Shown here: positions 15,322-50,470 of the stretch, in pieces
Position numbering within the stretch: position 1 is the first letter of the stretch
Layout: the number at the start of each line of letters is the position of its first letter
Assembly: GCF_018613315.1 (NCBI RefSeq)
Contig: NZ_JAGGQL010000035.1
Coordinates: 1 to 57,929 of the forward strand
Source: Bacillus sp. ISL-37
GTDB lineage: Bacteria > Bacillota > Bacilli > Bacillales > Cytobacillaceae
DNA length: 57,929 bases
Direction: 5' to 3'
The notes under the pieces: model-generated
The model's input: only the letters and a program-made list of their open reading frames with translations
What the model was told of the DNA's origin: nothing
Database searches by the model: none
Program-made: the position numbers and the translations under genes

Positions 15322-15720
15322 GAAAAGCGCAAGCGCCTTGGTCAGCCCCGACAAGCGTTGCCCGACTATAACGCCACATCCTGTGGCAGTCGGGTCTGCA
15401 CGTCCTGTGCCTCAGAGGGCCGACCGGTGAAGTCGCTCTTTGACTTCATCGTGCGGACCGAAATCGAAAAGTATAGCCGACTGCCCAGAAACGCAGAAAC
15501 TGGAGACTCCGACCCTGCCGGCGGAGTTGAAGTTTCGGAGTTTCTAGGAGGCGACACTGGCCAATTCGAAATGCGGAGGCGACTGCTCAACTCCGACAAG
15601 CGCTGGAGGGCCTGACAGTGAAGTCGTTCTTTGACTTCATTGGCAGGACCGAAGCGTCTCGAGGAGTTAGGAGCCGCAGCTAGACAAACGTCTCGAGGGG
15701 CTAGGCGCTGGAGCCAGACA
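15322..15720. repeat. long copy of a dispersed AGCGCAAGCGCC repeat
   Basis: It begins AAAAGCGCAAGCGCC and ends TAGGCGCTGGAGC, with internal modules GTGAAGTCG(C/T)TCTTTGACTTCAT repeated twice (about 15428 and 15617) and several GACTCCGAC/GTCGG-type complementary segments. The same ends and a single module occur at 22000-22158, and the ends alone at 19113-19180. ORFs crossing it are repeat artefacts. It lies between a minus-strand start region and a minus-strand terminator. Confidence 0.8.
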
Positions 15721-17078: not shown

Positions 17079-17276
17079 TTACTTAAGTATTTCTCTTTCC
17101 ATCCTATCTTTACCTTCCAAAAGTTTCAAGTAGCTATTCAGTTTGGACTTGTATTTTTTTCCATTTACGATTAATGTCACAATTTGTCCATATAAATTTT
17201 CCCAACACCAAATACAAAAAACCTGCTCTATACCCGTATTAGCAACATTTCTAAACATCAAGCCTATTAATTTCAT
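17079..17276 (-). CDS. hypothetical 65-residue protein
   Basis: An ORF upstream of and co-oriented with the MFS gene encodes a protein with two cysteines (FCIWCWENLYG) and a lysine-rich C-terminal helix (KKYKSKLNSYLKLLEGKDR). No ribosome binding site is evident before the ATG and I recognise no family. It may not be expressed. Confidence 0.25.
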   Translation of the reverse strand: MKLIGLMFRNVANTGIEQVFCIWCWENLYGQIVTLIVNGKKYKSKLNSYLKLLEGKDRMEREILK

Positions 17277-17367: not shown

Positions 17368-19113
17368 ATGAATTCAAATCCGAAGTTTGTTTCTAAGATC
17401 CTTCCGCTTTTTGCGGCGTTTATGGTTATAATTACGTTAGCAGCGACATTTGTCGTTCAAAATACTACTGATGATAAAGTATCGGTTCCATTTTCTTCGC
17501 TTGTCAAGTCTATTGAGGGCCTAAATGGTGGCGAAGCAACACTTATTGAAAAAATGGATGGAACTCTTGTACTCGAGACAAAAGATTCAACATTTGTTTC
17601 CCAAGTTCCTCCTGGCAGCCAGATGGTTGAGAAATTAGTAGAGAAATATAATATAAACTATGAATATATGAACAACAGCAAGTATGGCGCTTGGATCCTT
17701 GGTGGAGTCTTATTGCTGTTGATGGGTACTGCGTTCGTGATCCAAAAGAAAACAGGAGGTATAGGCACCGGCAATAGAATGAAAAACAGTTTATCAAAGC
17801 CTAACCCCCTGCCTTCCATTACTTTAGCAGATGTAGGTGGATTGCAAGAAGAAATGAAAGAAGAAATCATCCAGACTCTTTCAATCTTGAAAAATCCAGA
17901 TAAATCATCCAAGATGGGCATTAAATCTCCAAAGGGGATTCTGTTATACGGACCTCCAGGCACAGGTAAAACCTTACTTGCACAAGCTATTGCCCGTGAA
18001 TTGAATGCCAATTTCTTCTCAGCCAGTGGATCTGCATTTAATGAAATGTTCATCGGTGTAGGTGCATCGCGTGTCCGCAGCTTATTCCAAAGTGCCCGCA
18101 AGCAAGGCCCTGCTGTAATTTTCATCGATGAAGTCGATGCTCTTGCAGGCAAGCGTAAACCCCATGGCGGTGAAGAAGGTGAAAAGACATTAACAGAGCT
18201 TCTTGTCCAGCTTGACGGAGGACATTCTAACGATGGCATCCTATTCATTGCTGCAACAAACAGAAAAGACATGCTTGATGATGCATTCCTGCGCCCTGGA
18301 CGTATCGATTTCTCATTTAACGTCCCTCTTCCTGATACGAAAGGGAGAAGAGAAATCATCGATATCCATATTAAAGGAAAAAACCTTGCTGACAATGTAG
18401 TCGCATCATTGGATGACCTGGCAGAAAGTACTTCTGGATTCTCAGGCGCAGAGCTGCATTCATTGTTTGAAACTGCAAGTAGACGGGCGTTAAGGAATGG
18501 ACATGATTTCATTTCGAAGAGTGATATAGATTATGCTCTTGACCGAACAATACTAGGTAGCACGTCCCGCGCCCTTCAGGATGCCGATACAAAGCGCAGG
18601 GTAGCAATCCATGAGGCAGGACATGCTCTCGTATCAGCTGTCACTAAACCTGGTTCAGTCCGTAAAGCAACGATTATTCCTCGGGGACAGGCACTCGGTT
18701 ATGTGGCTCCAATTCCTAAAGAGCTTCAATTGTCCACACACAGCGATTTGATCGACCGGATTGCCATGATTCTTGCTGGCGGTGTCGCTGAAAGAATGAT
18801 TCTAGGTGAGCACAGTATCGGGGTAAGCGGTGATGTCCAACAGGCTAAACAGATCATTGAGCAAATGGTAGACACCGGATTGCTTCAGGAAGGTTTCTCA
18901 CTTACATTTAGCAAAGGCTTAAAAGAAACAAAAATGCAGGAGCTTTTCGATGACGCTTTAGAAAAATCCGAAATGATCATAAATGCCCACCAGAATCAAT
19001 TTGAACGACTAGTAGATGAATTGCTAAAGAAAGAAACACTTGATGGTTCCGAGGTTGATGAGATCGTACAGGATAAATCTAGATTTCGTGAAGATCAATA
19101 TATAATGGCTTAA
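17368..19113 (+). CDS. FtsH-like membrane AAA+ zinc protease, divergent paralogue
   Basis: The 581-residue protein has two membrane helices (about residues 10-30 and 107-125), Walker A GPPGTGKT (195-202), Walker B VIFIDEVDAL, pore loop MFIGVG, a zinc site HEAGH (415-419) and a C-terminal SGDVQQA that can supply the third zinc ligand. Housekeeping FtsH has about 640 residues and an SRH ending RPGRFDR. Here the segment reads RPGRIDF, so the last of the known arginine fingers is phenylalanine. Both active sites otherwise look intact. It is probably a specialised second FtsH. It stands alone between a divergent MFS gene and repeats. Confidence 0.85.
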   Translation: MNSNPKFVSKILPLFAAFMVIITLAATFVVQNTTDDKVSVPFSSLVKSIEGLNGGEATLIEKMDGTLVLETKDSTFVSQVPPGSQMVEKLVEKYNINYEYMNNSKYGAWILGGVLLLLMGTAFVIQKKTGGIGTGNRMKNSLSKPNPLPSITLADVGGLQEEMKEEIIQTLSILKNPDKSSKMGIKSPKGILLYGPPGTGKTLLAQAIARELNANFFSASGSAFNEMFIGVGASRVRSLFQSARKQGPAVIFIDEVDALAGKRKPHGGEEGEKTLTELLVQLDGGHSNDGILFIAATNRKDMLDDAFLRPGRIDFSFNVPLPDTKGRREIIDIHIKGKNLADNVVASLDDLAESTSGFSGAELHSLFETASRRALRNGHDFISKSDIDYALDRTILGSTSRALQDADTKRRVAIHEAGHALVSAVTKPGSVRKATIIPRGQALGYVAPIPKELQLSTHSDLIDRIAMILAGGVAERMILGEHSIGVSGDVQQAKQIIEQMVDTGLLQEGFSLTFSKGLKETKMQELFDDALEKSEMIINAHQNQFERLVDELLKKETLDGSEVDEIVQDKSRFREDQYIMA

Positions 19114-46221: not shown

Positions 46222-46350
46222 TTACCAATGGCGTGTATTTTCAAGTAAACGGTCAATTTCAATTTGGTTCAGTGTAAAACTCAGATCAGTTTCAGCAATT
46301 TCCGTTGTCTCATCCAAGAGCTCGTCAATATCCATGCTAATTGTTCCCAT
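46222..46350 (-). CDS. unknown acidic 42-residue protein
   Basis: ATG after GAGGAGGTTCGGT opens a frame encoding an acidic protein (MGTISMDIDELLDETTEIAE at 1-20, then LSFTLNQIEIDRLLENTRHW). It has its own terminator and sits between two terminators, so it is probably a single-gene unit. It has no signal peptide or membrane segment and I recognise no family. The strong ribosome site supports translation. Confidence 0.6.
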   Translation of the reverse strand: MGTISMDIDELLDETTEIAETDLSFTLNQIEIDRLLENTRHW

Positions 46351-46485
46351 ACCGAACCTCCTCATAGTTTTCAGCTGGACAGATAATGTACGTCCGGCTT
46401 CGTGAAAATAGTTCGTATATTATATGAGGGTTCTGGGGGTAATTTAACGCTATTAAAATTTTCCCAAGTTTTCCGGGTAAAAAAA

Positions 46486-46511
46486 CAAAAAGGCCTAAAG
46501 TCGGCCTTTTT
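46486..46511 (-). terminator. terminator after the pro-peptide gene
   Basis: AAAAAGGCC and GGCCTTTTT form the stem; on the minus strand the T-run is TTTTTGTTTTTTT. It sits 11 bases after the stop codon of the pro-peptide. Confidence 0.8.
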
Positions 46512-46521
46512 GCTGCAATTT

Positions 46522-46614
46522 TTATACTGGAGGTTGGATTGGTGGCATGCCTGCTGCTAAAACACCTAAAGCAAATGCACTTGTTGAAAGTAAAGCAAAT
46601 AACTTCTTTTTCAT
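46522..46614 (-). CDS. putative signalling pro-peptide, 30 residues (Phr/NprX/PapR-like)
   Basis: The ORF starts at ATG after GGAGGAATGTAAC, 15 bases past the stop codon of the HTH-TPR regulator. It encodes a positively charged start (MKKKLF), a hydrophobic export core and a short proline-rich tail, GMPPIQPPV. This is the size and layout of RRNPP pheromone precursors, which are exported, trimmed and re-imported to bind the TPR regulator. The likely mature peptide is the last 7-9 residues. Export and processing are inferred; the gene pair and ribosome site are visible. A terminator follows at once. Confidence 0.7.
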   Translation of the reverse strand: MKKKLFALLSTSAFALGVLAAGMPPIQPPV

Positions 46615-46629
46615 GTTACATTCCTCCAT

Positions 46630-47850
46630 TTAATTAATTTTTTGAATATATTTTACTGCTTGATCGAACCTGCCTATTTGTTGATAGTGGTTCGATAGCA
46701 TTTTGTAAAATCCAATTAATTCCTCACTTTTCCCATCACTTTCTTCTAAATACGGAATTACTTTTGATTCAGAGTAAGCAAGTGATTTTTCAGGAGACTC
46801 AAGGTTCATAAGATAATAATTTGATAGTATTTTATACTTGCGATTATCTAACTTCTTGGAGACTTCATGGACCTCTTCAAAAGCCTCTCTTGCCTGATCA
46901 TTATTGCCAAGTTCCAAGTTAATTTCACCTATAGAATACGTGGTTATTATATAGTTTAGATTAATCTGTGTTTGCATTTCCTTACTTTTTTCAAAGAATA
47001 CGAGGGCATCTTGATAATTATTCAGTTTCTTCTGCAAGTAACCCATATTATGATAGATATCAGGTAGCAGTTTGGTTTCTTTTAATAATTCTGCATTCCG
47101 GATCAAGTGCTTAAAACAATCTTGAGCTTCTTCATAAATTTTAGAGTGTGTATAGTTGATTCCTAATAAAATCATTACGTGCAATATCCGCTTAAAGTTA
47201 TGGTCCTCCATAAATTCTTCCAGTGCTAGCTTGCCATAGTATATAGCATAACCTGGTTCTTCAAGTGAACTTTTAGCCAATGCGCGATGATATAGTAATT
47301 CCCCACTAGAAATTTCGATTTTTGATGCTTTCCCTATCGAATCTAAAATGCCATCCGCTTTTTTACAATTCCCCTTCTTTAATAACCATACAGCATGCAG
47401 ATAGGAAAATAAAGCCATTTGAGGTTGGGAAAATATATTCTTTTGCTTATTCAACAGTTCAAATTGCTTACTTGCTTCAGATATCTTACCTTTAAAAATC
47501 AAATACCTATATTTAGCGAGCTCATATGTATGTAGATTTGTTGAAAAAGGGATGATTCCTTCAAACTCTTGCAGCTTCTTCATTACATCATCAGCTTCAT
47601 CGTTTAAGTAATAATCAATTTTCTCATTCAGTTCACCGACCAGCTGCTTAATCTGTCCTTCATTTTCCGTAATTGATGAAAGGTTGACGCCAAGTCTCTC
47701 GAGCAATAGTCCCATTGTTTCTTCATTGGCTTCCTTCGAATTGCTTTCGATTTTGCTTAAATGGGGAACTGAACATATGCCATTAGCCAGTTCCTTTTGT
47801 GTTAACCCTTGCTGGATCCTATAAAATTTAATGAGTGGTCCGAATTGCAT
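46630..47850 (-). CDS. HTH-TPR transcriptional regulator of the RRNPP class (NprR/PlcR-like)
   Basis: The 406-residue protein has an N-terminal XRE helix-turn-helix (FYRIQQGLTQKELANGICSVPHLSKIES, about 9-36) and some eight to nine TPR-like helical pairs to the C-terminus (for example YHNMGYLQKKLNNYQDALVFFEKSKEMQ, about 270-297). PlcR has about 285 residues and NprR about 420, so size favours the NprR group. The adjacent small exported peptide and the co-oriented subtilisin gene upstream recall NprR-NprX control of extracellular protease. It is preceded by a terminator and has its own 120-bp leader with GGTAGGTGAACG before ATG. Confidence 0.82.
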   Translation of the reverse strand: MQFGPLIKFYRIQQGLTQKELANGICSVPHLSKIESNSKEANEETMGLLLERLGVNLSSITENEGQIKQLVGELNEKIDYYLNDEADDVMKKLQEFEGIIPFSTNLHTYELAKYRYLIFKGKISEASKQFELLNKQKNIFSQPQMALFSYLHAVWLLKKGNCKKADGILDSIGKASKIEISSGELLYHRALAKSSLEEPGYAIYYGKLALEEFMEDHNFKRILHVMILLGINYTHSKIYEEAQDCFKHLIRNAELLKETKLLPDIYHNMGYLQKKLNNYQDALVFFEKSKEMQTQINLNYIITTYSIGEINLELGNNDQAREAFEEVHEVSKKLDNRKYKILSNYYLMNLESPEKSLAYSESKVIPYLEESDGKSEELIGFYKMLSNHYQQIGRFDQAVKYIQKIN

Positions 47851-47972
47851 ACGTTCACCTACCGTTTTCTTTTAATCTACCATCTTTTCTAACATTTTAA
47901 ACAGACCAAAAGTACTATTTTTTAAAAATTCTATATTTTATAAATTATTTCTTCATATATTACTATAAATCA

Positions 47973-48010
47973 TTAAATAAAGCCACCCGGATCAATCAAC
48001 CCGGATGGCT
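47973..48010 (-). terminator. terminator of the subtilisin gene
   Basis: AGCCATCCGG and CCGGGTGGCT pair with one mismatch around a 10-base loop, followed by TTTATTT on the minus strand. Confidence 0.8.
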
Positions 48011-48029
48011 GGCATAGTTGTCAGTTTTA

Positions 48030-49313
48030 TTATTTTACGCGTGGGAAACCGAAACCAGATGCATAATCGTCTCCAGTTGCTGCTCCTGTTCCACCTTTGA
48101 TGTCATAAAGCTTAGCACGTCTTTGGATTTCAGAACGAAGCTGTGAGTTGCTCCAGTACTTGTTAGATGACCAAAGCTTCGCTGCAAAACCCGCAATATG
48201 CGGAGTTGCCATTGAAGTACCACTCATTGTCGTATAGTTTCCATCTACTGCAGTTGAGTAAATGCCTCCGCCAGGAGCAGAAACTTCAACATCTTTTTCC
48301 TGGATATAGTAGTCGCCGTCAGTATTAGGGTTTCCGCGAGAAGAGAAGTTGGATACTCTATGAGTTCCGTTGACGAATGCGTTGTCAAGTGATGCAACTG
48401 CGATGGCATTTGTCAATGCGCCAGGGTAGCCAATAGTGTTCGCATATGGACCGCTGTTCCCAGCAGCTGCTACTACAAGCGCACCTTTGCTGTATGCATA
48501 GTCAACAGCGCTCGCGATCATTGAATCTTTTCCACTTGAACCAAGTGACATATTGATGACTACTTTCGTTCCTGTTCGTACTCCTTCATCAGCAGCATGG
48601 CGAATCGCTCCTGCGATGTCATCTGAGTAACCTGAACCGTTATCGCCAAGAACTTTATAGCCCCAAAGTTCAGATTGTGGTGCTACACCATAGATACCTG
48701 CTCCGTCATAACCACCATTGGCGACAGCTGTTCCAGCAACATGTGTTCCGTGTCCCTGACGGTCGGTACATGTTCCGTTAACCAAAGGTGAACTTTGTGT
48801 AAAGTCTTTACATTGTTCGACATTATCAGTTAAGTCGATGTGGTTGCGATTAATACCAGTATCCAGGACAGCTACCTTGATTCCATCGCCGCCGCTTGTA
48901 GATTGGATGTAGTTATCATTATAGATTGCTTGAATGCCCCAAGGAGTTTGGTCAGATGGATAAGATGCCTGAACAGTGTAATCACCCTTGTCTTTTCCTT
49001 TACCATTGCCATTTCCTTCAACACGAGCGTCAATTGTGTGTATCCCAACCTGAGAAACATCGATATTTTTGTTCTTTAACAATGCCTGATATTGCTTGCT
49101 GTTTACTTCTGCTGTAAATCCTTGATTACCAAAGTCCCATCGCTTGCCATACTGTTCTTGTACTTTAGCTTTTTCTGCACTCGGACCCTGAATCAAAACT
49201 CGATAAGTATCCTGGCTTTCTGGTGTTGTAGCACCAAAAGCCCCTGTCGCAAACATGGAAACACCCATTGCCAAACTAAGTACTGCGGATCCGAATATTC
49301 TTTTCTTTTTCAT
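48030..49313 (-). CDS. secreted subtilisin-like serine protease (S8)
   Basis: The 427-residue pre-pro-enzyme has a signal peptide (MKKKRIFGSAVLSLAMGVSM then ...ATGAFGA), an inhibitor-I9-type propeptide (YRVLIQG to about residue 95), a GNGNGKGKDKG linker and the peptidase domain with Asp in VAVLDTGIN (about 147-155), His in GHGTHVAGTA (about 184-193), oxyanion Asn in AAAGNSG and Ser in GTSMATPHIAG (about 363-373). It should be an extracellular alkaline-type protease. ATG at 49313 follows GAGAGGAGCAAAAG. It precedes the HTH-TPR/peptide pair and may be its target. Confidence 0.93.
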   Translation of the reverse strand: MKKKRIFGSAVLSLAMGVSMFATGAFGATTPESQDTYRVLIQGPSAEKAKVQEQYGKRWDFGNQGFTAEVNSKQYQALLKNKNIDVSQVGIHTIDARVEGNGNGKGKDKGDYTVQASYPSDQTPWGIQAIYNDNYIQSTSGGDGIKVAVLDTGINRNHIDLTDNVEQCKDFTQSSPLVNGTCTDRQGHGTHVAGTAVANGGYDGAGIYGVAPQSELWGYKVLGDNGSGYSDDIAGAIRHAADEGVRTGTKVVINMSLGSSGKDSMIASAVDYAYSKGALVVAAAGNSGPYANTIGYPGALTNAIAVASLDNAFVNGTHRVSNFSSRGNPNTDGDYYIQEKDVEVSAPGGGIYSTAVDGNYTTMSGTSMATPHIAGFAAKLWSSNKYWSNSQLRSEIQRRAKLYDIKGGTGAATGDDYASGFGFPRVK

Positions 49314-49367: not shown

Positions 49368-49397
49368 AGTATATTTTAAATTTTCAGCCAATATCAA
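49368..49397 (-). promoter_or_regulatory. candidate promoter of the subtilisin gene
   Basis: On the minus strand TTGATA (49392-49397) and TATACT (49368-49373) are separated by 18 bases; the start would lie about 50 bases upstream of the ATG. Confidence 0.45.
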
Positions 49398-49459
49398 CTG
49401 TTAACCGAGCCTTTCTGTTTGGGAAAAATGAAACACAAAAATACAGTATTGACGCTGTT

Positions 49460-49508: not shown

Positions 49509-49707
49509 CATGATAGTCAATTTCTGATTAACATGTTTCTTCCTTATATACATTTAAATTTAGAGCGGTATACGATAACAAAATGGCAAAAAAGAACTGG
49601 TAAATCATGATCCAAACATATTGGGAAACCGCTTGCTTTAGAAAGCATTTATAGAAAAAAAGACCCATAAAACATGCTCCAATTCACCTCATTTCTCGAT
49701 ACTAAAT

Positions 49708-49756: not shown

Positions 49757-50470
49757 TTAAATGCTTTGCTGAGAGTATTTAAAAAAGGCACATCAGGGAT
49801 AGTTTTTGAGTTATTAAGGTAAAAGGCATGATTCGGTTTAATGCCAATTATACAGGGCTGAAGCCCCATCAACTGGAGTTCATTAACAAGTGAAACGAAG
49901 ACTTCTACTCCTTCGATTGTTAAATTTCCGACTCCATTAAAATCGAACAGAACCTCTTGATAGTCCCCTTCTTGTGATTTTTAATACCCTCTTTTCATTT
50001 TGGCCAATCAATTCAACATCCAGGTTTCCAAAAAGAGGCACCAATGCCGTGCTTTTAGTTAACTTAATGAATGGGCAAGAAAGACCTTTAATTTCGAAAA
50101 GTGTTTTTTCAACCAACTCTTTTTTTTCAAGCAGTTCCAGATTTGTGTCCGCCAGCCGTTTACGGTGTTTATCAACAATACTTTCTAATTCCATCAGACG
50201 ATGGTCTTTTCCAATACAAATGATATGACCCCTATCTCCACTCCAATTTACACTTATGTCAAACAGGGCATATGGGGATTCTTTGGTTTTCATGGTCAAT
50301 TCGCCTTCTGCCTTGCTTTCCTTATTTCCCAAAATATTTTTTGTTTTGCCATGGCTTTCCCTATCCACCAGGTCAAGAAACTTATCACCTATTGTAAAAG
50401 TCTCTGAGCCTATTTGGGAAAATCCAAGGATATTATAGTCGTCACGATCTAAATAAAAAATGAGCATCAT
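49757..50470 (-). pseudogene. STAS-domain RsbR-like gene with a +1 frameshift
   Basis: The first frame starts at ATG 50470 (after TTTGGAG) with a PAS-like N-terminal part (FYLDRDDYNILGFSQIG...), a coiled-coil linker (RLADTNLELLEKKELVEKTL) and the start of a STAS domain (GLSCPFIKLTKSTALVPLFG). It then reaches KRVLK and stops 14 codons later. The next frame continues the STAS domain: QEGDYQEVLFDFNGVGNLTI, then EGVEVFVSLVNELQLMGLQP to a stop at 49757. The switch falls in a run of five A near 49980. Either it is a real inactivating indel or a sequencing error. Confidence 0.75.

What the first reader, a model, noticed from the sequence alone, without database searches (positions are those of the whole stretch)
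46522..49313. Possible new RRNPP-type quorum-sensing cassette beside a subtilisin gene
Seen: a 406-residue HTH-TPR regulator; 15 bp after its stop codon a 30-residue ORF with a strong ribosome site, an export-type N-terminus and a proline-rich end GMPPIQPPV; then a terminator. A secreted subtilisin gene lies directly upstream on the same strand. Known: NprR-NprX and PlcR-PapR have this layout and control secreted proteases or virulence factors by a re-imported short peptide. Inferred: the last 7-9 residues are the pheromone and the subtilisin is a target. A mature peptide with four prolines in eight residues is unlike the known SKPDIVG and ADLPFEF types.
Basis: partly seen in the sequence, partly recalled or inferred. 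Interest (0 to 1): 0.82.

Follow-up and report, generated by a model that had tools for sequence, protein, structure and literature searches.

The report
Proline-rich pheromone switch for secreted proteases
A soil bacterium and many of its relatives carry a conserved, apparently undescribed pair of genes, a tiny proline-rich signal peptide and its likely receptor, that comparative evidence ties to control of protein-digesting enzymes released by the cell.

Summary
The regulator occurs in 21 of 21 genomes of the genus (Mesobacillus) and in other genera and families. Every complete orthologous locus examined (99 of 99 in the family, 7 of 7 at 37-43% identity outside it) has a small downstream ORF with P-I-x-P-P at or near its C-terminus; one copy is frame-disrupted. 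The motif is conserved (0.77 pairwise identity), the residues before it are not (0.12). A subtilisin gene lies upstream in 69 of 100 loci. I also found a candidate operator, TTTCCCAA: in 69 of 69 adjacent subtilisin promoters, 9 of 9 non-adjacent ones of regulator-bearing genomes, 0 of 2 of regulator-less genomes; upstream of the regulator in 28 of 31 loci lacking adjacent subtilisin; and inside the regulator's coding sequence in 91 of 100, at the gene's peak of synonymous-codon conservation. In the window's genome it also precedes two more S8 proteases, an M4 protease, an FtsH-like protease and an OppA-type protein. This is a new RRNPP-type subfamily, related to NprR but without its peptide code and Spo0F-contact residues.

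The parts
46522..46614 (-). pheromone propeptide gene, 30 aa MKKKLFALLSTSAFALGVLAAGMPPIQPPV, stop included
   Evidence: orthologous small ORF with PI.PP in 99 of 99 complete loci
46525..46551 (-). inferred mature pheromone region GMPPIQPPV (core PIQPP); exact ends unknown
   Evidence: motif hexamer 0.77 mean pairwise identity against 0.12 for residues just upstream
46622..46627 (-). ribosome-binding site GGAGGA of the propeptide gene
   Evidence: sequence
46484..46514 (-). terminator-like hairpin after the propeptide gene
46630..47850 (-). HTH-TPR receptor/regulator, 406 aa
   Evidence: 21 of 21 genus genomes
47425..47432 (-). intragenic candidate operator TTTCCCAA at codons 140-142 of the regulator
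   Evidence: same codons TTT TCC CAA in 91 of 100 loci
47380..47445 (-). extended intragenic DNA-level element, codons 136-157 (consensus TTTCCCAAC..., TATTTATTT, TAtnnT)
   Evidence: peak of synonymous conservation, consensus
48030..49313 (-). secreted subtilisin (Peptidase_S8), inferred target and possible maturation protease
   Evidence: conserved upstream neighbour
49419..49426 (-). candidate operator TTTCCCAA in the subtilisin promoter
   Evidence: 69 of 69 adjacent subtilisin promoters
49368..49397 (-). sigma-A-like promoter TTGATA-N18-TATACT of the subtilisin gene
   Evidence: 10 of 12 consensus matches (6 promoter-like sites in the region, mean 11.1 in shuffles, so weak on its own)
17194..17206 (+). 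candidate operator AAATTTTCCCAAC upstream of an FtsH-like gene
17368..19113 (+). FtsH-like AAA+ metalloprotease (AAA + Peptidase_M41), candidate regulon member
   Evidence: Pfam; site kept in the 7 other genus genomes looked at, which were picked because they had a site

Best explanation
This is a peptide quorum-sensing cassette of the RRNPP type, of a subfamily with a proline-rich pheromone code (x-P-I-x-P-P-V/I/L/A). Shown by comparison: the receptor gene, the small ORF with an invariant PIxPP end, the subtilisin gene in most genomes, and an 8-bp promoter motif (TTTCCCAA) travel together across many genera. Inferred: the propeptide is exported and trimmed, perhaps by the secreted proteases themselves; the 7-9 residue pheromone is re-imported through an oligopeptide permease, binds the TPR groove, and lets the HTH domain bind TTTCCCAA and activate the subtilisin, two other S8 proteases, an M4 protease, an OppA-type binding protein and others. 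A further copy of the site inside the regulator's own coding sequence probably works as a regulator-dependent element (internal promoter or autoregulatory site) that adjusts transcription of the 3' part of the regulator and the pheromone gene, closing a feedback loop. Likelihood: pheromone-receptor pair about 0.9; TTTCCCAA its operator about 0.8; intragenic site a functional DNA element about 0.75, an internal promoter for the pheromone about 0.4.
For: Regulator in 21 of 21 genus genomes and 112 of 193 family genomes at E<=1e-25, weaker paralogues included. PI.PP ORF in 99 of 99 complete loci, one frame-disrupted, and in 7 of 7 orthologues outside the family at 37-43% identity; in 0 of 20 distant paralogues. 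Leader-like N-terminus in 94 of 99. Two to five tandem copies in 8 loci. Subtilisin upstream on the same strand in 69 of 100 loci while other flanks change; in 76 of 99 regulator-bearing genomes against 2 of 45 tested regulator-less ones. TTTCCCAA in 69 of 69 adjacent promoters, 9 of 9 non-adjacent subtilisin genes of regulator-bearing genomes, 0 of 2 of regulator-less ones; upstream of the regulator in 28 of 31 loci without adjacent subtilisin; inside the regulator in 91 of 100, at the peak of synonymous conservation. 13-mer AAWTTTTCCCAAC: 3.1 per regulator-bearing genome, the cassette's own sites included (control 1.7), 0.7 per genome without a close regulator (control 2.3). In the own genome, of 10 further genes with a co-directional intergenic site within 300 bp, 3 are S8/M4 proteases, out of 17 other S8/M4 matches and an assumed 4,700 genes, p about 5e-6. 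M4 promoter site in 8 of 9 genus orthologues searched at 79-95% identity; Vpr-like S8 promoter site in 11 of 11 orthologues at 86-100%, own genome included.
Against: No expression, binding or peptide data. WTTTTCCCAAH is not enriched genome-wide (57 against 53 for the reversed control), so sites outside conserved promoters may be chance; 35 of 57 lie in called ORFs. M4 genes outside the genus are mixed: site in 3 of 4 regulator-bearing genomes (not G162) and 1 of 2 regulator-less ones (G129); in the genus G012 and a second M4 gene of G008 lack it. The Vpr-like gene of G012 (53%) lacks it. 3 of 31 loci without adjacent subtilisin have no site upstream of the regulator. The g8 clade (8 loci), the paralogue L142 and 3 g48 orthologues lack the intragenic site. 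The -10-like hexamer of the intragenic element is weak. 23 of 99 regulator-bearing genomes have no close subtilisin. G162's peptide frame is disrupted and G011's regulator is split over two frames. A relative outside the PIxPP group also has the intragenic site (Geobacillus plasmid gene), so the site is not tied to this pheromone code.
Confidence: 0.8

Rival explanations
1. The peptide is an intracellular co-activator that need not leave the cell; the leader is dispensable and the system senses its own expression, not cell density.
For: Leaderless forms: MEKRRASNPPIQPPV (G012), MTQFFQTVVSRSASLGPIWPPI (G099), MNKTIQTAMVPIQPPI (G098), and ORFs of only 10-12 residues such as MKRKAPILPPIV in three g48 genomes (start codons not checked further); shortened, less hydrophobic leader in G017. 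In the tree G098 and G099 are sisters, so at least two losses in the family.
Against: 94 of 99 family loci keep a basic-plus-hydrophobic leader by a simple hydropathy rule; tandem copies in 8 loci suit proteolytic release; an OppA-type gene carries the site in the two genomes looked at, which were picked from site hits. Leaderless exported signals are known (LCP class, PMC10518010, abstract and outline seen).
Confidence: 0.12
2. TTTCCCAA is the site of some other stationary-phase regulator that happens to control both the protease genes and this cassette; the HTH-TPR protein acts elsewhere.
For: The motif also occurs at an M4 gene of one regulator-less genome; no binding data; no genome-wide enrichment.
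Against: Present at 9 of 9 non-adjacent subtilisins with the regulator and 0 of 2 without; 13-mer count falls to 0.7 per genome without a close regulator, also within genus g18 (3.0 in 50 genomes against 0.9 in 11); sites cluster at the cassette itself. Much of the HTH recognition region (G24, C26, S27, H30-E35) is invariant in 56 rows, as the motif is.
Confidence: 0.15
3. The intragenic TTTTCCCAA is only a protein-level constraint (Phe-Ser-Gln of a TPR helix).
For: F140 and S141 are invariant residues in the alignment of 56 rows.
Against: Ser codon TCC in 90 of 96 although TCC is 19% of Ser codons in these genes; L147 TTA in 85 of 96, L156 TTA in 86 of 95; best 9-codon window of synonymous conservation starts at codon 139. 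In the g8 clade the Gln and the codons are lost together. The same nine bases sit at the same offset in a Geobacillus plasmid relative at 27% identity, though with Phe-Ser-Gln given, chance is about 9% from the codon shares.
Confidence: 0.12
4. The cassette is simply NprR-NprX in other genera.
For: NprR is the best PDB relative (E 1.9e-23; 92 of 330 aligned residues identical); an M4 protease is among the candidate targets, as NprA is for NprR (PMC4147580, passages seen).
Against: NprX code absent; in the window 5 of 6 alignable NprR peptide-contact or closure residues and 4 of 4 Spo0F-contact residues are changed; the NprR TPR domain falls outside the PIxPP group in a quick tree, with long branches and weak support (55).
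Confidence: 0.1

Closest known systems
NprR-NprX (Bacillus cereus group)
   Same: HTH-TPR receptor followed by a small propeptide gene, beside a secreted protease gene; M4 protease and other degradative enzymes as targets; nearest solved relative (4gpk; 28% identity); tetramer residue F225 kept as F219 in 96 of 96 and N306 kept in the window.
   Different: Pheromone PIxPP instead of SKPDIVG; R126, Y165, W167, H201, D309 (peptide contact or closure), D107, Y118, E188, Y223 (Spo0F), and H205, H206, N407, Y410 (dimer) are changed in the window, though position 167 is Y or F in 80 of 96 family rows (roles from PMC4970707, passages). PMC4147580 (passages) says nprR is not autoregulated and its DNA site was not precisely determined; here sites lie at or inside the regulator gene.
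PlcR-PapR
   Same: HTH-TPR plus small propeptide; regulon of secreted enzymes.
   Different: No exact PlcR box in the window with the recalled form TATGNANNNNTNCATA (one base differs from the form printed in PMC4147580); 6 one-mismatch matches, none at these promoters, mean 2.9 in shuffles. PapR code ADLPFEF (abstract line of PMC6568020) is unlike PIxPP.
Rap-Phr / Rap105
   Same: TPR relatives by sequence (E 1.7e-6 to 8e-4); tandem pheromone copies in the propeptide occur in both (PMC11343458, passages).
   Different: Rap proteins lack the HTH (PMC4970707, passages); here an HTH is present and strongly conserved.
Leaderless communication peptides (RopB-LCP)
   Same: Short leaderless signal ORFs paired with an RRNPP-type receptor (PMC10518010, outline and abstract seen).
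   Different: Receptor of another subfamily; here leaderless and leadered forms share one code within one family.

Membership tests
RRNPP (Rap-Rgg-NprR-PlcR-PrgX) quorum sensing | N-terminal HTH plus C-terminal TPR receptor | tested here: met
   HTH_3 E 1.1e-9, TPR families to 4e-14
RRNPP (Rap-Rgg-NprR-PlcR-PrgX) quorum sensing | adjacent small propeptide gene with conserved C-terminal code | tested here: met
   99 of 99 complete loci
RRNPP (Rap-Rgg-NprR-PlcR-PrgX) quorum sensing | export-type leader on the propeptide | tested here: met
   in the window and in 94 of 99 family loci by a simple hydropathy rule; not in G012, G017, G098, G099 or the disrupted G162; absent in three g48 genomes. No signal-peptide predictor was run
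RRNPP (Rap-Rgg-NprR-PlcR-PrgX) quorum sensing | re-import and direct binding of the peptide by the receptor | not testable with these tools
NprR-NprX | SKPDIVG-type pheromone | tested here: not met
   PIxPP in 99 of 99
NprR-NprX | NprR peptide-contact and closure residues R126, Y165, W167, H201, N306, D309 | tested here: not met
   G121, G160, C162, S195, N299, I302 in the window; only N306 kept there; R343 not alignable
NprR-NprX | Rap-like Spo0F-contact residues D107, Y118, E188, Y223 | tested here: not met
   P101, K113, S182, H217
NprR-NprX | protease gene beside the regulator and protease regulon | tested here: inconclusive
   adjacency met, with a subtilisin instead of an M4 gene; M4 and S8 targets are candidates from promoter motifs only
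PlcR-PapR | PlcR box TATGNANNNNTNCATA in target promoters | tested here: not met
   no exact match in the window

The most novel reading that the evidence does not exclude
A widespread RRNPP subfamily whose receptor gene carries, hidden in its own codons, a conserved operator or internal promoter for the downstream pheromone gene, so that pheromone, pheromone-trimming proteases and peptide importer are all switched on through one 8-bp site; and in which the pheromone repeatedly evolved from an exported propeptide to a leaderless mini-ORF hardly longer than the mature signal.
Probability: 0.45. Interest if true: 0.85.

Novelty: new variant of a known kind. Interest (0 to 1): 0.74.

Why it matters
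It gives, from sequence alone, a pheromone code, a receptor family, a candidate operator and a candidate regulon in one system, all directly testable with a synthetic 8-mer and one reporter. Passages of PMC4147580 (2014) state that the DNA sequence bound by NprR still had to be determined precisely; a strictly conserved site in a related branch offers a handle. The intragenic, codon-conserved site and the repeated loss of the leader within one pheromone family are unusual and let one ask how secreted signals become leaderless.

Tried and rejected
Rejected: chance ORF (motif invariant in 99 of 99); plain NprR or PlcR membership; a large regulon read off the 11-mer alone (57 sites against 53 control); a plasmid or phage origin (plasmid relatives only at 25-27% identity in 11 records, no phage match at E 1e-10; two plasmid systems looked at have propeptides ending STVVIKG and DYPNP). 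A CodY-box-like stretch near the subtilisin promoter (49379-49393) has 3 mismatches to a consensus that I recalled and is at chance level in the window. At Rfam's gathering thresholds nothing was found in the finding's region.

Literature. A full-text search for PIQPP, HPIQPP, HPILPP, PIYPPL, PILPPV, HPIHPP gave 4 papers, unrelated by title. The listings (14 papers; 10 of 75; none) showed no such system by title or abstract. Term searches inside PMC10075063, PMC9765709, PMC11343458 and PMC12700828 found none of the motif strings tried. Only open-licence papers are held, and the supplementary cluster tables of RRNPP_detector (PMC10075063; passages and section 7 seen) could not be opened, so this may be one of its unnamed clusters. 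The search for TTTTCCCAA or TTGGGAAAA in papers gave 546, of which the 20 listed were unrelated by title.

Notes on counts. The Fisher test was typed with 22 instead of 23 regulator-bearing genomes without subtilisin; I quote the counts, not its p. Adjacency was scored at tblastn E<=1e-5, other genomes at E<=1e-60. 'Regulator-less' genomes include some with only 25-30% paralogues. The listing of matches was cut off, its per-genome counts were not.
Full report
Observation.

Is the small ORF real? The regulator was searched first and the peptide only then looked for. The regulator is present in 21 of 21 genus genomes and, at E<=1e-25, in 112 of 193 genomes of the family, weaker paralogues included. 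I fetched 100 loci from 99 genomes, one of them a second, 29% copy in G041. One locus (L116) ends at a contig edge; the other 99 all contain a small ORF with P-I-x-P-P at or near its C-terminus after the regulator. x is Q 35, L 33, Y 15, H 11, W 4, R 1; the preceding residue is H 41, P 28, D 12 and others; the next is V, I, L or A in 96 of 99. Mean pairwise identity is 0.77 in the motif hexamer and 0.12 in the hexamer just upstream (98 loci). In one locus (L064, G162) the motif is out of frame with its leader. Of 11 matches outside the family at E<=1e-45 among 397 genomes of the order, the 7 at 37-43% identity have the motif and the 4 at 29-32% do not. Twenty distant paralogues of the family (25-31%) have no PI.PP within 700 bases downstream, and no TTTCCCAA in the gene or within 900 bases upstream; two have copies just downstream.

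Variants. Eight loci carry two to five tandem copies of the motif, for example three copies of TPIYPPL in L132. A simple hydropathy rule finds a leader-like stretch in 94 of 99; the exceptions are G012 (15 aa), G098 (16 aa), G099 (22 aa), G017 (24 aa, shortened) and the disrupted G162. Three g48 genomes of another family have ORFs of only 10-12 residues such as MKRKAPILPPIV. G098 and G099 are sisters in the tree, so the leader was lost at least twice in this family and probably again outside it.

The neighbour. A subtilisin relative lies upstream on the same strand in 69 of 100 loci, in 67 of them 130-250 bp away, while the other neighbours change between genera. Of 30 regulator-bearing genomes without adjacency, 7 have it elsewhere. 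Of 94 genomes without a close regulator I tested 45, and 2 have it.

A candidate operator. All 69 adjacent subtilisin promoters contain TTTCCCAA. The best -10-like hexamer found by script lies 43-45 bases after it in 40 of 69, 40 bases in 19, and 25-39 in 10; by eye L061 has the promoter about one helical turn closer. All 9 non-adjacent subtilisin genes in 7 regulator-bearing genomes have the motif 119-136 bases upstream of the matched region; the two in regulator-less genomes do not. In 28 of 31 loci lacking adjacent subtilisin it lies 60-300 bases upstream of the regulator. The 13-mer AAWTTTTCCCAAC averages 3.1 per regulator-bearing genome (99 genomes, cassette sites included; control 1.7) and 0.7 otherwise (94 genomes; control 2.3); within genus g18 the averages are 3.0 (50) and 0.9 (11).

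The intragenic site. In 91 of 100 regulator genes the nine bases TTTTCCCAA fall at codons 140-142. A synonymous-conservation profile over 96 genes has its best 9-codon window starting at codon 139; the strongest single codons are L156 (TTA) and S141 (TCC), z 5.3 each, then L147 and V154. TCC is 19% of serine codons in these genes. The consensus extends to TTTCCCAACaTgA....taTTTATTT...TA.t...ATGC..TAt..TTA.T, with a weak -10-like TAtnnT 34 bases after the motif. Four of the seven orthologues outside the family have it; the three leaderless g48 genomes do not. A Geobacillus plasmid relative at 27% identity, whose propeptide ends DYPNP, has TTT TCC CAA at the same offset; three other plasmid relatives do not. 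The element may therefore be older than the PIxPP code. The g8 clade, which carries the tandem pheromones, lacks it and shows two or more sites upstream of its subtilisin. I read this as a DNA-level regulatory element; an internal promoter feeding the pheromone gene is the most attractive reading, but a roadblock or looping site would also fit.

Candidate regulon. The own genome has 57 WTTTTCCCAAH sites (control 53). 22 are intergenic by a simple gene call. Co-directional genes within 300 bases are 11: the window's subtilisin, two other S8 proteases, an M4 protease, the FtsH-like protease of this window (17368-19113), a SinR-like regulator, a STAS-domain protein, a small secreted protein, a carbon-nitrogen hydrolase, and two others. 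An OppA-type binding protein (SBP_bac_5) starts 295 bases after a further site that the simple call had placed inside an opposing ORF. The genome has 16 S8 and 2 M4 matches; 4 of these 18 have the motif upstream, and a fifth (L274) only in reverse orientation. Leaving out the subtilisin from which the motif came, 3 of 10 being S8/M4 has p about 5e-6 for an assumed 4,700 genes. The M4 site is kept in 8 of 9 genus orthologues found in the 11 genus genomes searched (not in G012); outside the genus it is present in 3 of 4 regulator-bearing and 1 of 2 regulator-less genomes. The Vpr-like S8 site is kept in 11 of 11 orthologues at 86-100%, own included, and not in a 53% relative in G012. The FtsH-like and OppA-type sites were seen in genomes chosen because they had a hit there.

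Relation to known systems. The nearest solved relative is NprR (E 1.9e-23; 92 of 330 aligned residues identical). With that alignment and the residue roles given in passages of PMC4970707, 5 of 6 alignable peptide-contact or closure residues and all 4 Spo0F-contact residues are changed in the window, as are dimer residues H205, H206, N407 and Y410, while tetramer residue F225 is kept as F in 96 of 96; position 167 is still aromatic (Y or F) in 80 of 96. In a quick tree the 98 family rows form one group (support only 55, long branches) with NprR outside. So it works like NprR as a transcription factor but is not NprR by its pheromone or Rap-like residues. In B. subtilis, subtilisin-type proteases mature some Phr pheromones (PMC11343458 and PMC4147580, passages), so the subtilisin may be both target and maturation enzyme; this is inference.

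Limits. No structure could be predicted. Mature peptide ends, export, import, binding and direction of regulation are inferred. Novelty is judged against open-licence papers only.

Noticed in passing
window 46458-46468 (+) and the same place in several genus loci: ATTTTCCCAAG just beyond the peptide's terminator, before a conserved 47-aa ORF (46222-46365, minus; no Pfam match), but in reverse orientation to that ORF.
   Followed up: partly
window 50414-50421 and 49621-49628 (-): Two more TTTCCCAA copies near the subtilisin, one inside a 198-aa ORF; the window holds 10 copies against a mean of 5.6 in shuffles (3 of 100 shuffles reach 10).
   Followed up: no
L205 (Geobacillus stearothermophilus plasmid pBSO1), gene 894-2114: An HTH-TPR gene at 27% identity with a propeptide ending DYPNP carries TTT TCC CAA at the same offset (418) as the PIxPP family, and TTGGGAAA 26 bases upstream of its start.
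   Followed up: partly
L164 (G000:C24:39614): A site 133 bases upstream of a SinR-like gene with a SinI domain, which would link the pheromone to biofilm control if real; not tested in relatives.
   Followed up: no
L222/L226, L221/L230, L223/L224/L231: AAWTTTTCCCAAC sites that look conserved between Mesobacillus genomes next to genes that I did not assign as targets.
   Followed up: partly
L062 (G011): The regulator is split over two overlapping frames although the pheromone ORF (ending GMPPILPPY) is intact; lesion or sequencing error not decided.
   Followed up: no
window 15350-15411 (+): Bacillaceae-1 RNA (RF01690), 37.1 bits, just above its gathering score of 35.
   Followed up: no
L191 (G069): A distant HTH-TPR paralogue followed by a 51-residue ORF ending with the tandem repeat YGEELPEYGEELPEY, possibly another pheromone family.
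   Followed up: no
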